Shown here one piece after another: positions 2,869-46,836 of a stretch of 64,000 nucleotides of DNA. The translations under genes and the position numbers were made by a program. The stretch spans positions 240,541 to 304,540 of the forward strand of contig PKUK01000008.1 of assembly GCA_002869535.1 (NCBI GenBank), given 5' to 3'. Position 1 is the stretch's first letter. Each line of letters begins with the position of its first letter. This DNA comes from Arcobacter sp. (GTDB taxonomy: Bacteria; Campylobacterota; Campylobacteria; Campylobacterales; Arcobacteraceae). The notes below the pieces were generated by a model that was not told the DNA's origin, did not search any database, and was given only the letters and a program-made list of their open reading frames with translations.

Positions 2869-4572
2869 CTAGAACATAAAATATTTTTTTGCCATTGGTA
2901 CTGTTGATACATAGTTTGATTCTATTAACTCTCCATCAACTGTTACGTCATATGTCTCTGGATTAACTACAATATCTCCAATAAAGTCATTTAACTTCAT
3001 ATCTTTTTTACCTATACTTCTTGTATTTTTAACAGCAAGTACAGCTTTATCGATTTCAAGTTTATCTTTTATACCTTCTTCAATTGCTATATTTGAAGTA
3101 AAGATTGCACTTGTTTTTGCACTTGCTTTTCCTAAACTTCCAAACATAGGTCTATACATATTTGGTTCTGGTGTTGGAATTGAAGCATTTGAATCACCCA
3201 TCATACTAAGTGCTATAAATCCACCTTTGATAATAATCTCAGGTTTTACCCCAAAGAAAGCTCTATTCCATAAAACTAAGTCAGCCATCTTACCAACTTC
3301 TACACTTCCTACATACTCATCTATTCCACAAGCGATTGCAGGATTTATAGTATATTTTGCGATATATCTTTTGATTCTATTATTATCACTTAGTTCATCA
3401 TCTCCATCTAAAGCACCTCTTTGTTTTTTCATAGAGTCTGCCACTTGCCAAGTTCTTGTAAGTACTTCCCCTACTCTTCCCATAGCTTGTGAATCTGAAC
3501 TAGTTATACTAATAGCTCCCAAGTCATGTAACACATCTTCAGCTGCAATTGTCTTACCTCTAATTCTGCTCTCTGCAAAACTTACATCTTCAGGAATCTT
3601 TGGACTTAAATGGTGACATACCATGAGCATATCAAGATGTTCTTCAATAGTGTTTTTTGTATATGGCAAAGTAGGATTAGTACTTGATGGTAATATATTT
3701 GCTAGTCCAGCCACTTTCATAATATCAGGTGCATGTCCACCACCTGCTCCTTCACTATGGAAGGTATGTATTGTTCTATCTTTAAAAGAGTCAACTGTAT
3801 TATCAACAAAGCCTGATTCATTTAAGGTATCTGTATGAATAGCAACTTGTACATCATATTCATCAGCAACACTTAAACAAGTATCAATAGCTTTTGGTGT
3901 ACTTCCCCAATCCTCATGGAGTTTTAGTCCCATAGCTCCAGCTTTTATTTGAACCTCTAAAGCCTCTTTACAAGAACTATTTCCTTTTCCCATAAAACCA
4001 AAGTTAAGTGGTAAGTTATCAACACTTTGTATCATCTTACCTATATTCCACTCCCCTGGGGTACAAGTTGTGGCATTTGTTCCTGTATTTGGTCCAGTTC
4101 CACCACCTACCATAGTAGTAACTCCACTAGCTAGTGCAACATCAATTTGACCAGGACTTATAAAGTGAATATGTGAATCTATACCACCAGCAGTTATAAT
4201 TTTACCTTCAGCTGATAGTATTTCAGTGTTTGCTCCTATTTCTAAACCTTCTGTAATACCATCACAAAGATTTGGATTTCCAGATTTTCCAATAGCTATT
4301 ATTACACCATCTTTGATACCAATATCAGCTTTATAAATACCTGTATAATCAATAATAACAGCATTTGTAATAATCAAATCAGCAACATCAACAGCCGTTG
4401 GACTTTGTGCCATTCCATCTCTTACTGTTTTACCACCACCAAACTTACTCTCTTCTCCATAAGTTGTATAATCTTTTTCTATCTTAGCTATTAAAGATGT
4501 ATCAGCAAGTCTAAATCTATCACCAGTCGTTGGTCCATACATTGAAGCATATTTTTCTTTTGATATTTTCAT
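2869..4572 (-). CDS. ureC: Urease alpha subunit UreC
   Basis: This is the catalytic subunit, which hydrolyses urea to ammonia and carbamate at a two-nickel centre in the cytoplasm. The 567-residue length is standard. All expected active-site elements are visible: HIHFISPGQ (nickel His pair), GLKLHEDWG (the lysine that is carbamylated), [25 protein letters not shown], the flap [14 protein letters not shown] with its catalytic histidine, and [12 protein letters not shown] with the nickel-binding aspartate. It begins one base after ureAB. Nothing suggests this subunit is inactive. Confidence 0.98.
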
Positions 4573-42728: not shown

Positions 42729-42910
42729 AAATTATCTTGAAGAGGTAAACCTCTCCGCTTTCTTACTTTTTCATCTTCTAAATCTTTTTCCATGATTTGT
42801 TTTAGCATCATATCAAAGTCATTGTGAGCTTTCCAATCATGAACTTTCTTAGTCTCTTTTTCTTTAGAAGCTTTTTCAGAGTATGTATCGTGACTTTTAT
42901 CTACTTTCAT
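42725..42910 (-). CDS. Small charged hypothetical protein
   Basis: A 61-residue soluble protein rich in Lys, Glu and Asp (YSEKASKEKETKKVHDWKAH, then KQIMEKDLEDEKVRKRRG). No known fold is recognised. AAGGAAAATTT precedes the ATG. The last 12 codons (VRKRRGLPLQDNF) are encoded by a 36-base sequence that recurs with one mismatch at 46283-46318, on the far side of the gene cassette region. Confidence 0.65.
   Translation of the reverse strand: MKVDKSHDTYSEKASKEKETKKVHDWKAHNDFDMMLKQIMEKDLEDEKVRKRRGLPLQDNF
42735..42770. repeat. 36-bp direct repeat, left copy
   Basis: This matches 46283-46318 in the same orientation with one difference (C at 42755, T at 46303). It contains the partial palindrome AAGAGG-TAAA-CCTCTT. 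The left copy encodes the C-terminus of the 61-residue protein and the right copy is noncoding. The two copies bracket the cassette region. Confidence 0.75.
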
Positions 42911-42997
42911 AAATTTTCCTTAGTATTTTTATACTTGGGAATGATTTTATTGTTTTATTGTGTAGTGTAAATAAAGGTTGTTAGTCGCTTTTGAAAA

Positions 42998-43129
42998 CTT
43001 TAACGACCGACTTAAGGGACAATACCCCTCAAACAGTTCGCTGATTTCTTTTTGTAACCACTGGATGATAGCTAATAAATGCTATAAAATTCGCTGGGTT
43101 ACTTGTTCCTTTTCTAGGCTTTGTTATAC
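42998..43129 (-). other. attC-like integron recombination site, long (VCR-like) form
   Basis: Read on the minus strand, the site begins GTATAAC directly after the stop of the gene at 43130 and ends GTTAAAG, close to the R-Y-Y-Y-A-A-C and G-T-T-R-R-R-Y box rules. The outer arms pair imperfectly (AACAAAGCCTAGAAAAGGAAC against the complement AACGACCGACTTAAGGGAC), and an inner stem pairs GTAACC...TATAGC with GCTAT...GGTTAC. Length 132 bases, similar to long chromosomal attC sites. Recombination activity is inferred. Confidence 0.68.
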
Positions 43130-44275
43130 TTATATAAAACTAGAATCAACTATCTTTTCAAGCATCTTTTTATATCTAGTTTTATATTCATCCCTTTTAG
43201 GAATAAAGAAAACTTTTTCTAATTCATTTCTATTATTTAATTCATAACATAATTCTGTTCTTAATTTATCAAATATAGAAAGATCATATTCATTATAAAA
43301 TCTTCTTTCATTAATAAACATACAATCTTCTATAAAAATATTCCTTTTATGTTCCGATAAATTATCAATAATTGATGGTTGCACATACCAATCATCATGC
43401 GAAGCCATAATCGCTTCAATAAAATTTAATATTGTAAGTTTAGTTGTAAAAAAATTATTTATTTTATTTACAATCTCTTGAAATTCTAAGAGTTCATTAG
43501 GTATTAAAATAATAATAACTGTTTTATTTTCAAATGGAATTACGGTAATATAATAGTTAACTTTTTTTTCTTTAATAATAAGTTTATTAAGTGAATTAAT
43601 TGCTACTGGCATTTGAAAATCAGTGATATAATATAACAATGTGTATTCCATATTTTCTGTTGTTAAAGTATTTAAAATATTATCTTTTAGTTGATTGTTA
43701 TTAGATTGAGGTAATAATTTATATTCTAAATACTTTAATAAATTATCTATTGTTATGATTTCAGAATCTGTATGTTCACTGACCTCAAAAATGATTTTTT
43801 TCTTTATCGCTATTAATATTTCATCATTATTTAAATGTTCTATTAACGAATCATATCCTTTCCTCTGTAAATATATTTTAACTTCTTCTATTGATATTAA
43901 TTCTGGTTTATTCCAATTTTTGTAATTATATGTACTTAATAAAGCATTTTTTTCATTATTTAATAAAATTGCTAAAGAACGAAATGTTTGTAAAATAATA
44001 TCTTCTACTGTAAATATACCTTTTGTATCTAATTTTTCAAATATATCATCATGTTTTTTACAAAAAATATAAGAAGCAGTGGCTTCATTAATTCCAATAT
44101 TATCAAAATACGGTTTTTTAGTATATTGACTATTTTGTTTTGGAAGAAAACATTTTAAATGTTGATTCTCAGAAATAGATTGTAAGGATATCTTATTGGA
44201 AATTGCATGTGCATTAATCGCTATATTTTGGCATTCAGGATAATAGCAACTGTCAGTATTAAAATGTGTGTACAT
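43130..44275 (-). CDS. Cassette-borne hypothetical protein with zinc-finger/HNH-like N-terminus
   Basis: The ATG at 44275, behind AAAAGGAAAAAA, gives 381 residues; an upstream TTG at 44317 would start inside the attC site. The N-terminus carries CYYPECQNIAINAHAISN and later ASYIFCKKHDDIFEKLD, a Cys-x4-Cys, Ala-His, Cys-x2-His-Asp pattern that suggests a treble-clef zinc or HNH-like fold. The remaining 280 residues are helical and not recognised. Its 3' end abuts one attC-like site and its 5' end follows another, so it appears to be a complete gene cassette. Low GC matches the surroundings. A defence role is plausible but not shown. Confidence 0.7.
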   Translation of the reverse strand: MYTHFNTDSCYYPECQNIAINAHAISNKISLQSISENQHLKCFLPKQNSQYTKKPYFDNIGINEATASYIFCKKHDDIFEKLDTKGIFTVEDIILQTFRSLAILLNNEKNALLSTYNYKNWNKPELISIEEVKIYLQRKGYDSLIEHLNNDEILIAIKKKIIFEVSEHTDSEIITIDNLLKYLEYKLLPQSNNNQLKDNILNTLTTENMEYTLLYYITDFQMPVAINSLNKLIIKEKKVNYYITVIPFENKTVIIILIPNELLEFQEIVNKINNFFTTKLTILNFIEAIMASHDDWYVQPSIIDNLSEHKRNIFIEDCMFINERRFYNEYDLSIFDKLRTELCYELNNRNELEKVFFIPKRDEYKTRYKKMLEKIVDSSFI

Positions 44276-44294
44276 TTTTTTCCTTTTCAATTTA

Positions 44295-44364
44295 GTATAA
44301 CGTTTAAAATGAGCCAATAAATTGCCCGCAGGGGTAATTTATTGGCTCCTCTGATTTGTTATGT
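44295..44364 (-). other. attC-like integron recombination site, short form
   Basis: On the minus strand it runs from ACATAAC to GTTATAC. The core is a near-perfect stem: GAGCCAATAAATTACC with GGCAATTTATTGGCTC around CCTGC. Spacer bases AAATCAGAG and ATTTTAAAC separate the stem from the end boxes, the expected attC layout. The stop codon of the HNH gene lies inside the first box, as is common in cassettes. At about 70 bases it is a typical attC size. Confidence 0.75.
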
Positions 44365-45747
44365 GTAGATTTCAAATAACTCATCCTCAGTAATTTCTAT
44401 GCCAAACTCTTTTAGTCTGTCATTTTTTATTTCTAATAATTTGTTTAATATTTCTGTTTTATCTTCTATAAAACCAAAATGTAATTTTCTATGACAAGTA
44501 GGGCATACAGAAACAATATTTGCGGGGATATCTAAACTATACAAAAACTCTTCTTGAAATTGTAGAGGTACTAAGTGATGTGCTTCCATATATTGTTCAT
44601 TTGTTGCTCTTGAGAAAAAAGTTTTATGTGTACTATCCACTTCACATATAAAACTTGCTTCTTCCAAGGCTTTTTTTGCATATGCTAAATTTCTAGGATA
44701 TATTTTTCCACCATTTTTTTCTTTTGACGATTTTACCGGCTGTGGTTTATGTTCGGGTTCATTTGAATTTATATTTTCTATATTTTCTTGCAATTCTACA
44801 TCCGCTGAATTATCATCAAGATAGTAAACTTTTTGGGAATTTATATGGTCAATAACTTTTTTACTCGTTATATTGTCTAATAACTGATAAGTTCTAAAAT
44901 TTCCTAACTGTGGCTTTACTATTTCTAAAATTGTTTGATAATCAATATAATCAACCAATTCTAGATTATATGAATAATCCAATGGATATTCTTTGTCATC
45001 TGTTTCTTCAATGTTTGTAATATTTCCCATCGCAAATACATTAGCATTTTTTACAAAAAGAACAATGGCACCATTTGACTGCAGCCATTGTTGTTTATAT
45101 CTTTCTTTTTCTGCCCATCTACTATTGTTATATTCTAAAAAATCATCAATAGAATTATGTGTTCCAATAGGTTGTACAACAATTAACTGTTTTTTTGAAT
45201 CAATTGTGTAATATTCATATGGTTTTTTTGTCTTGTCAACTTTTATTTTTTCATGTTGTGTATTTGAAATTAAGACAGCACTAAGTGTACCTCTAATCTT
45301 TTCTTTTGATGTTTTTTCAGTTTTTGTATAGTTTTTGTCATAGTCTGGGTACATTTTGATATATTTCTCTACCAACTGTGCTTCTGTTGCTCTTCCACCT
45401 AATTGTTGTAATGCGAAATATGCTTTATCTTTGATTGTTAGCATGTTATTTTTTTGTGTAGATTTTTCAATCAAGATATTTTCATTATGTTCTTTTAAAA
45501 ATTCGATATATCTATTTAATGCACTATTGTACATATTTTGACCACGACGATTTTTTTCATAATATTCATCAATCTTAAAGTAATCGGTTTTAATTTTTTG
45601 AATAGTCTGTACATTATTTATTGAGTATAAATCATGATTTGTATATTTTATTTTTTCTAAGTCTTTTGAAATAGTTATTATTGTTTTAGCATATCTTTCT
45701 GGTCTGTTGTTGTCAATTAACCAAGTTTCAAACAGTTTTTGTTTCAT
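44359..45747 (-). CDS. HNH endonuclease, restriction-like, in a gene cassette
   Basis: A 462-residue protein. The C-terminal HNH domain is clear: CEVDSTHKTFFSR, MEAHHLVPLQFQ (catalytic histidines), then NIVSVCPTCHRKLHFG, with four cysteines for structural zinc. The layout resembles McrA/Type IV-like nucleases. Residues about 105-190 (IKDKAYFALQQLGGRATEAQLVEKYI) look like a HARE-type winged helix found in restriction proteins. The N-terminal 100 residues are unrecognised. It follows the 80-residue gene by six bases and ends in an attC-like site. It probably cuts modified or foreign DNA, by analogy. Confidence 0.82.
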   Translation of the reverse strand: MKQKLFETWLIDNNRPERYAKTIITISKDLEKIKYTNHDLYSINNVQTIQKIKTDYFKIDEYYEKNRRGQNMYNSALNRYIEFLKEHNENILIEKSTQKNNMLTIKDKAYFALQQLGGRATEAQLVEKYIKMYPDYDKNYTKTEKTSKEKIRGTLSAVLISNTQHEKIKVDKTKKPYEYYTIDSKKQLIVVQPIGTHNSIDDFLEYNNSRWAEKERYKQQWLQSNGAIVLFVKNANVFAMGNITNIEETDDKEYPLDYSYNLELVDYIDYQTILEIVKPQLGNFRTYQLLDNITSKKVIDHINSQKVYYLDDNSADVELQENIENINSNEPEHKPQPVKSSKEKNGGKIYPRNLAYAKKALEEASFICEVDSTHKTFFSRATNEQYMEAHHLVPLQFQEEFLYSLDIPANIVSVCPTCHRKLHFGFIEDKTEILNKLLEIKNDRLKEFGIEITEDELFEIYT

Positions 45748-45753
45748 AGTTAA

Positions 45754-45996
45754 TTAAACTCTTTCCCATTCTGTTGGATCTTCTGGAATTCCAAAAGTAG
45801 ATGTATCCAGCAGTTCTCCTGTTTCTGGATGAAGCACTGAAAAAGTGACATCATTTGCTAAATCTTCTGATGCTTGCCAAGCTTCAGCATAACTGCCTAA
45901 ACTTTCATTATCAAATATTGGATGAAATCTTCCATCTGAAGACTGTCCTATATAAAATGTACCAACTTTCGTTGGATATGCTAATAATAATCTCAT
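45754..45996 (-). CDS. Small hypothetical protein coupled to the HNH nuclease gene
   Basis: An 80-residue protein (MRLLLAYPTKVGTFYIGQS at the start, EDPTEWERV at the end) of mixed strand and helix character, with no membrane segment or known motif. Its base composition is less AT-rich than its neighbours, pointing to a different origin. It starts just after GAAGGACAGACA and ends six bases before the nuclease gene, so the two form a unit. It could regulate or accompany the nuclease, or be an unrelated passenger. Confidence 0.7.
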   Translation of the reverse strand: MRLLLAYPTKVGTFYIGQSSDGRFHPIFDNESLGSYAEAWQASEDLANDVTFSVLHPETGELLDTSTFGIPEDPTEWERV

Positions 45997-46096
45997 TGTC
46001 TGTCCTTCACATAATTATTTATTGAACATTCATTATATACAAAATAGCCTTGAATTTGTGATATTTATAACATAAATAATGTTGGTTTAATGTATG

Positions 46097-46126
46097 AAAG
46101 AAAAGCCTTTATTTAGGCTTTTCTTT
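46097..46126. terminator. Strong hairpin
   Basis: AAAGAAAAGCC and GGCTTTTCTTT form an 11-base perfect stem with an eight-base loop, ending in T-rich sequence on the plus strand and A-to-T-rich sequence on the minus. It lies about 100 bases upstream of the small cassette gene and may insulate it from other transcription. Confidence 0.7.
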
Positions 46127-46282
46127 TAATTATTGATTTCAATTTGTCTATATTGTAATATTTTTAAAGTATATTTATGAAATTTTATGTATGGTTTACC
46201 CCTGTATTTACCTAATAAAACTACATTATGTATAACTATTTGTCAGAAATCGTGATAAAACTACATTTTGTTATATTTATTC

Positions 46283-46836
46283 TCTTGAAGAGGTAAACCT
46301 CTTCGCTTTCTTACTTTTGTATTGACGAAAAGTAAGCAAAAACAACTACGGCTTCGGAGCCAAAGGTTCCCTCATTTATTATTTTTAATTTCTAGCTTGC
46401 GGAACTCCTAAAAAAGAGTGAGTTTATCACTCTTTTTTACTCAAACAAGTCCTCAGCTTTCTCCGAAATGAAAAATAAACATTCGGCTCCTGCAGATGTA
46501 GAAAGAAATCCCTTCGGTTGTTTCTTCTTCTGTACAGTCTTTATATTAATTAGAGTAAGTAAAAGTTTGGAATCTAAACAAATCAAAAGTTCAAATGTCC
46601 TTATCACACCTTTGTTTCCAACATCTACAGAAGCTGAGTGTTTGTTTTATCTTTTCGGAAAAGGCTTGCAACTGTTTGAGTAAATAAATATGCTAAACGC
46701 ATATTTATTTATGAGTTTTGCAAGACAGGAAAGATAAAACAATAAGCGAAGGTACCCAAAGGGCTTCGCAGCCGTTGGTGGTTTTGCTTACTTTGTCCAC
46801 ACAAAGTAAGAGAAGCGAAAACCTTTAGGTATTCAT
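46283..46836. repeat. Large imperfect inverted repeat made of two diverged copies of a ~270-base structured unit
   Basis: The left unit (from 46283) and the right unit (ending 46836, read in reverse) share the same order of blocks: CGCTTTCTTACTTT and a complementary AAAGTAAGCAAAA, CAACGGCTTCGGAGCC-like bases, CTTGC-x-x-AACTC, a variable hairpin (AAAAAGAGTGA/TCACTCTTTTT left; AATAAATATG/CATATTTATT right), TTACTCAAAC, TCCGAAA, and CATTCGGCTCCTGCAGATG. The variable hairpins differ in sequence but keep pairing, which suggests selection for structure. It is more GC-rich than its surroundings and has no credible gene. Confidence 0.65.

What the first reader, a model, noticed from the sequence alone, without database searches (positions are those of the whole stretch)
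42998..46276. Integrase-less integron cassette cluster with nuclease-like cargo
Two sites have attC form: a 70-base site at 44295-44364 with a near-perfect stem and boxes ACATAAC/GTTATAC, and a 132-base VCR-like site at 42998-43129 with boxes GTATAAC/GTTAAAG. Each lies directly behind a minus-strand gene, with the stop codon in or against the first box. They delimit two cassettes, one with an HNH nuclease and a small partner, the other with a zinc-finger/HNH-like protein. No integrase is in the window, so this fits a cluster of attC sites lacking an integrase. Integron cassettes in Campylobacterota are little described, and the cargo suggests defence.
Basis: partly seen in the sequence, partly recalled or inferred. 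Interest (0 to 1): 0.68.

Follow-up and report, generated by a model that had tools for sequence, protein, structure and literature searches.

The report
Integron that lost its integrase gene
A bacterium of the Arcobacter family carries two captured gene cassettes, probably including an anti-phage nuclease, behind the docking site and promoter of an integron whose integrase gene has been deleted, and many relatives carry similar integrase-less docking sites.

Summary
Both attC sites are real. Models trained only on other genomes find 44295-44364 (E 3.6e-17) and 42998-43129 (best hit in the 2.68 Mb genome, E 0.0014). They end two cassettes with exact crossover points: 46014→44301 (80-aa ORF + HNH protein) and 44300→43004 (395-aa protein). 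In both, the R'' box is 7/7 complementary to the first bases of its own cassette. Two congeners carry different cassettes joined at the same nucleotide to the same flank, so the locus is not fixed. So this is an integron that lost intI, with dispersed-repeat sequence in its place. The genome's only IntI is a ~135-residue fragment elsewhere. Among 62 attI-like sites retrieved by motif in Arcobacteraceae, only 8 adjoin a full-length intI. Cargo: the HNH protein resembles McrA-type (type IV) restriction enzymes; defence is likely for it, unsupported for the 395-aa orphan. The class is known and the instance new; the family-wide pattern is the interesting part.

The parts
46014..46276 (-). attI site and cassette promoter (Pc) leader of a former integron; crossover between 46015 and 46014 (AATAAATAA|TTATGT; A in place of the usual G)
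   Evidence: 67-68% identity over ~266 nt, 85-91% over the last 30-50 nt, to the DNA directly upstream of intact intI in relatives
46018..46037 (-). TATAAT-type -10 of the presumed Pc and attI core (TATAATGAATGTTCAATAAATA, 46016-46037)
   Evidence: motif conserved at attI sites of the family, only perfect match in the window; promoter activity inferred, generic sigma-70 scan did not call it
44301..46014 (-). gene cassette 1 (1714 nt): 80-aa ORF, HNH protein, attC
   Evidence: boundaries from crossover points; R'' ACATAAC is 7/7 complementary to GTTATGT of its own 5' end
45754..45996 (-). 80-aa ORF, first gene of cassette 1, function unknown
   Evidence: weak phrog_13590 match
44359..45747 (-). 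462-aa protein with C-terminal McrA-like HNH domain (residues ~330-434), candidate type IV restriction enzyme
   Evidence: PADLOC mREase_IV 4.2e-08; PDB 6ghc 5-methylcytosine-specific restriction enzyme A 5.6e-07; Pfam HNH 3.5e-04, just below its cut-off
44295..44364 (-). attC of cassette 1, short type (70 nt); crossover G|TT between 44301 and 44300
43004..44300 (-). gene cassette 2 (1297 nt): 395-aa/381-aa gene and long attC
   Evidence: R'' GTATAAC is 7/7 complementary to GTTATAC of its own 5' end; this cassette is absent from the same spot in congener G002
43130..44275 (-). orphan protein of cassette 2 (ATG start at 44275), Cys/His-rich N-terminus, function unknown
   Evidence: no Pfam, PADLOC, NCBIfam or PHROG match above noise; only relative found is a 79% identical C-terminal fragment in genome G032
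42998..43129 (-). attC of cassette 2, long VCR-like type (132 nt); crossover G|TT between 43004 and 43003
42882..43003 (.). conserved right-hand flank beginning TTAAAG at the crossover
   Evidence: 81-92% identical over 100 nt in G002 and G001, where it is joined to different cassettes
46276..46781 (.). dispersed-repeat sequence in the place where intI would lie
   Evidence: no IntI similarity; palindromic motif GAAGAGGTAAACCTCT with 6 copies in the genome
42731..42770 (+). copy of the dispersed repeat on the other side of the element, direct repeat of 46279-46318 (95% over 40 nt)

Best explanation
The locus is a chromosomal integron that has lost its integrase gene. It keeps the attI site, the presumed cassette promoter and two gene cassettes on the minus strand. 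A former or trans-acting IntI inserted each cassette by G|TT crossover between the folded attC of a circular cassette and attI (or a neighbouring attC). intI has since been deleted and dispersed-repeat sequence lies in its place. The genome's only other IntI is truncated, so the cassettes are now fixed. The attI also carries A instead of G at the crossover, which should hinder new insertion. The Pc-like promoter most likely transcribes the 80-aa ORF, the McrA-like HNH gene and then the 395-aa gene, giving host-beneficial, probably anti-phage, functions. Shown by sequence: attC identity, cassette boundaries, attI homology, integrase absence, cassette differences between congeners. Inferred: past recombination by IntI, promoter activity, immobility and defence function.
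For: Leave-out models find both attC. The short site is near-identical to attC lying beside intact intI in relatives. R'' is 7/7 complementary to the start of its own cassette for both window cassettes, as in 42 of 55 cassettes of relatives, against 4 of 55 for the linear R'. G002 lacks cassette 2 and has another first cassette, with breaks exactly at the crossover points. G001 has a third cassette joined to the same flank. The leader is homologous to the upstream region of intact intI in several genera and ends ~25-30 nt before the intI start. The own genome (99.96% complete) has only an IntI N-terminal fragment at C6:38702, with four attC beside it. Intact C-terminal HNH domain like EcoKMcrA.
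Against: No recombination, transcription or phage assay exists. The 132-nt site is not a stable fold by itself in the unconstrained prediction. A generic promoter scan does not call Pc, though this scan covers only -35/-10 promoters. Whether intI was lost before or after G000 and G002 diverged is unresolved because the two deletions end at different points of the leader.
Confidence: 0.9

Rival explanations
1. The cassettes were inserted off-target into an ordinary chromosomal site (attG-type insertion) by an IntI located elsewhere, so no integron ever stood here.
For: attG insertion is an established IntI activity (mentioned in PMC12444791 and PMC12901181). Other IntI loci exist in the genus. 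Cassettes changed between G000 and G002 at a locus that lacks intI in both.
Against: About 260 nt upstream of the first cassette are homologous to attI regions next to intact intI in several genera, which a random genomic target would not show.
Confidence: 0.05
2. An integrase-less attI/promoter platform that is still served in trans: attI-Pc copies without intI are loading sites for cassettes handled by a single IntI elsewhere in the genome.
For: Several attI-like sites per genome in relatives, most without full intI (62 sites: 8 full, 17 partial, 37 none). The first cassette differs between G000 and G002 although both lack intI at this locus. G002 has a complete 325-aa IntI on another contig.
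Against: In this genome no complete IntI remains and the attI crossover base is mutated, so it cannot be active now. Order of intI loss and cassette exchange is not settled. The pattern equally fits repeated independent loss of intI.
Confidence: 0.3
3. The hairpins are terminators or dispersed repeats behind ordinary genes, not attC sites.
For: Stem-loops directly behind stop codons; dispersed repeats do occur at this locus.
Against: Box geometry, leave-out model hits, arrays next to intI in relatives, R''/cassette-start complementarity and exact cassette presence/absence. Rfam finds no known RNA there.
Confidence: 0.01

Closest known systems
CALIN (cluster of attC sites lacking an integron integrase; Cury et al., as used in IntegronFinder, PMC9024848)
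   Same: Two attC within a few kb, no integrase gene nearby.
   Different: Keeps a recognisable attI and promoter leader, so origin by loss of intI is visible rather than assumed.
Sedentary chromosomal integrons with inactivated or deleted intI (Xanthomonas, PMC12444791; pseudo-integrons, PMC2426708)
   Same: Chromosomal, intI truncated or absent, cassettes kept and lineage-specific.
   Different: Campylobacterota; several attI-bearing loci per genome in the family rather than one ancestral ilvD locus; deletions leave the last ~57 nt or more of attI/Pc.
Vibrio superintegron VCR sites
   Same: The 132-nt site has VCR-like length and layout (resemblance recalled, not tested against VCR sequences).
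   Different: Sequence belongs to a long attC type found in Arcobacteraceae arrays.
McrA / type IV methyl-directed restriction enzymes with C-terminal HNH
   Same: C-terminal HNH domain matches EcoKMcrA (6ghc) and PADLOC mREase_IV; many plasmid relatives are annotated HNH endonuclease or DUF3578 proteins.
   Different: The N-terminal ~330 residues match nothing known; target recognition is unknown; 80-aa partner ORF.

Membership tests
attC recombination site | R'' (RYYYAAC-like) and R' (GTTRRRY-like) boxes enclosing a foldable imperfect inverted repeat | tested here: met
   the linear R' of the long site is GTTAAAG, not complementary to its R'', as expected after integration
attC recombination site | recognised by a model built on other attC sites | tested here: met
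attC recombination site | recombined as folded bottom strand by IntI | not testable with these tools
   needs a conjugation or in vivo recombination assay
gene cassette | crossover G|TT; R'' complementary to the cassette's own 5' end | tested here: met
   7/7 for both cassettes
gene cassette | presence/absence between relatives with breaks at the crossover | tested here: met
CALIN | at least two attC, no intI within about 4 kb | tested here: met
complete integron | functional intI next to attI | tested here: not met
   no IntI similarity beside attI; only a truncated IntI elsewhere in the genome
complete integron | attI site with G|TT crossover | tested here: inconclusive
   attI leader present by homology, but the base before TT is A, not G
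complete integron | Pc promoter driving the cassettes | tested here: inconclusive
   conserved TATAAT motif; not called by a generic sigma-70 scan; activity not measured
type IV restriction enzyme (McrA-like) | HNH nuclease domain | tested here: met
type IV restriction enzyme (McrA-like) | modified-DNA recognition domain and cleavage of modified DNA | tested here: inconclusive
   no N-terminal family match; AlphaFold model without alignment uninformative

The most novel reading that the evidence does not exclude
In Arcobacteraceae, integrase-less attI-promoter platforms are a regular genome feature: intI is repeatedly removed while attI and Pc are kept under selection, and where one IntI survives it loads cassettes into several such platforms in trans.
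Probability: 0.3. Interest if true: 0.68.

Novelty: new member of a known kind. Interest (0 to 1): 0.5.

Why it matters
CALINs are common but how they arise is mostly inferred: off-target insertion, loss of intI or rearrangement (PMC8618304). Here the attI and promoter left behind show loss of intI directly, and congeners show different cassettes at the same nucleotide. Arcobacteraceae, with many attI-like sites and few intact intI, would let one test whether loss of the integrase fixes useful cassettes and whether integrase-less sites still load cassettes in trans. It also shows that integrons are widespread in Campylobacterota, a group little covered in the integron papers held here.

Tried and rejected
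IntegronFinder was not available; own profile and covariance models were used instead, with the window's sites left out for the decisive tests. Rfam gave no hit at the locus. A first loose hairpin scan gave many false candidates and was replaced by a stricter one. cmsearch with default filters missed the long site; with filters off it is the best hit. One long candidate (L016) lacked a standard R' and was dropped from the model. Looking for IntI remnants in the window gave only chance-level hits. AlphaFold models of both cargo proteins without alignments were useless (pLDDT 33), so no fold search was made. The genome contigs and plasmid scans found no relative of the 395-aa protein; phages gave none for the HNH protein. 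Off-target (attG) insertion and terminator hairpins were considered and rejected on the leader homology and on cassette comparison.

Full report
Where it is. The window is part of contig C5 (240541-304540) of a 2.68 Mb, 99.96% complete genome. The family is Arcobacteraceae: relative G050 in the same family carries a 97,678-base contig equal in length to that of Arcobacter sp. CECT 8985, which came up with the same intI region. The identification of the family rests on this link and on the MAG names around it.

The two sites. The 70-base site folds into a near-perfect stem on either strand (z -6.2 to -6.6, 0 of 200 shuffles). The 132-base site does not beat its shuffles in an unconstrained fold. 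Searching the intI neighbourhoods of relatives turned up arrays of 69-71 nt sites nearly identical to the short one, and 130-135 nt sites with the same ends as the long one. To avoid circularity the decisive models left this genome out. For the short site, nhmmer gives E 3.6e-17, against 4.7 for the best hit in 1.28 Mb of shuffled sequence. For the long site, a covariance model from eight foreign sites ranks it first in the whole genome (37.4 bits, E 0.0014, and 7.2e-06 on 14 kb with filters off). The base pairs of that long model were set by hand from the ends, so its evidence is mostly sequence and layout.

The cassettes. In an integrated array the R' box of each attC is split: its GTT belongs to the junction and the rest is the next cassette's start. 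The original partner of R'' should therefore be the first bases of the same cassette. For cassette 1 the R'' is ACATAAC and the cassette begins TTATGT (with G: GTTATGT), 7/7 complementary. For cassette 2 the R'' is GTATAAC and the cassette begins TTATAC, again 7/7. Their linear R' boxes (GTTATAC and GTTAAAG) match less well. In 55 cassettes of relatives the rule gives 7/7 in 42 cases, against 4 for the linear R'. Cassette 1 runs from 46014 to 44301, cassette 2 from 44300 to 43004.

Comparison between species. In congener G002 the gene order fhs, DUF2721 ... methyltransferase, selB, selA, selD is conserved. There the right flank (window 42882-43003) is joined at the crossover directly to a short attC 92% identical to the window's, so cassette 2 is missing. 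The first cassette is a different gene (232 aa), whose start TTAGGC is again 7/7 complementary to its R''. In congener G001 the same flank is joined at the same nucleotide to yet another cassette (a 112-aa protein with a diverged attC), preceded by a HepT/MntA-like pair that ends in a further attC-like site. The flank is 81-92% identical over 100 nt among the three, the cassette side only 57-65%.

The missed part: attI and promoter. Upstream of cassette 1, 46014 to about 46276 is homologous to the DNA directly upstream of intact intI in relatives of several genera: 67-68% over about 266 nt in G024, G044, G020 and G010, and 85-91% over the last 30-50 nt in more. The shared end is TATATAATGnAnnTTCAATAAATAG|TTA, the attI core with a TATAAT-type promoter. 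Homology stops about 25-30 nt before the intI start codon. From there to about 46781 lies unrelated sequence containing a palindromic repeat (GAAGAGGTAAACCTCT) with six copies in the genome. A second copy lies at 42731-42770 (95% over 40 nt). In the window the base before TT at the crossover is A instead of G.

Integrase. No IntI similarity exists in the window. The genome's only IntI match is an N-terminal fragment (about 135 residues, 90% identical to the G002 IntI) at C6:38702, with its own attI and four attC, next to a guaB-like reading frame. So unless one hides in an assembly gap, the cassettes cannot move at present.

Family pattern. 34 of 150 relatives have IntI matches at E 1e-30, 24 above the curated cut-off. 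40 of 90 have short-type attC. The attI motif occurs in 33 of 90 genomes, often several times per genome; the reversed pattern hits once. Of 62 sites examined (60 retrieved by motif plus the window and G002 loci), 8 adjoin full-length IntI, 17 a partial IntI and 37 none, although 1.3 kb of upstream DNA was available for nearly all. Homology to intact attI regions reaches from 30 to 446 nt upstream, usually 57 nt or more (two diverged sites gave none). Caveat: the motif selects conserved attI and misses diverged ones beside intact intI, such as those of G024:C1 and G002:C24, so 8 of 62 is a lower bound for intact ones. Still, intI-less attI sites clearly outnumber intact integrons.

Loss or trans loading. 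In G001 and on G002 contig C18 about the first 17 codons of intI remain, then repeat-rich sequence. This points to repeated deletion of intI from its 3' end. Whether such platforms kept receiving cassettes from a distant IntI is open. The differing first cassettes in G000 and G002, both without intI here, would argue for it if intI was lost before they split, but the two leaders end at different points and repeats have rearranged the locus. I leave this at 0.3.

Cargo. Residues 328-434 of the 462-aa protein match EcoKMcrA (PDB 6ghc, E 5.6e-07) and the PADLOC type IV restriction model (4.2e-08). The motifs EAHHLVP and CPTCHRKLH are intact by eye. Plasmid relatives share only the C-terminal part. 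The 80-aa ORF directly before it has only a weak phage-family match. The 395-aa protein is an orphan; its C-terminal 77 residues recur at 78-79% identity in G032, followed by a degraded start of the same long attC, so gene and attC have moved as a unit. Its N-terminal Cys/His residues may bind zinc, but nothing shows a nuclease.

Novelty. Integrons in this phylum and integrons with dead or missing intI are both known (PMC8618304, PMC2426708, PMC12444791). I found no paper in the held library that describes Arcobacteraceae integrons, which is not proof that none exists. The locus is a new member of a known kind.

Noticed in passing
L102:3407-8135 (genome G001, syntenic neighbourhood): A QatABCD-type defence system and a HepT/MntA-like toxin-antitoxin pair lie beside the cassettes at the corresponding locus of a congener, so the spot looks like a defence hotspot.
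   Followed up: partly
G000:C6:37758-37817 (L036:17758-17817): GC-rich 60-nt attC behind a 221-aa ORF, unlike the AT-rich local type; looks like a cassette from another bacterial group.
   Followed up: no
window 42739-42766 and 46287-46314; G000 C4, C5, C9: Palindromic dispersed repeat GAAGAGGTAAACCTCT, six copies in the genome, at the edges of the element.
   Followed up: partly
window 46095-46128: Strong terminator-like hairpin inside the attI leader (14 pairs), shared with G002, between the intI side and the promoter.
   Followed up: no
window 4143-4424: Match to Rfam 5_ureB_sRNA (63.4 bits, gathering 40) outside Helicobacter.
   Followed up: no
L246, L247, L250 (genome G023): Three IntI copies of full model length with in-frame stop codons plus further fragments in one genome: integron duplication in progress or decay.
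   Followed up: no
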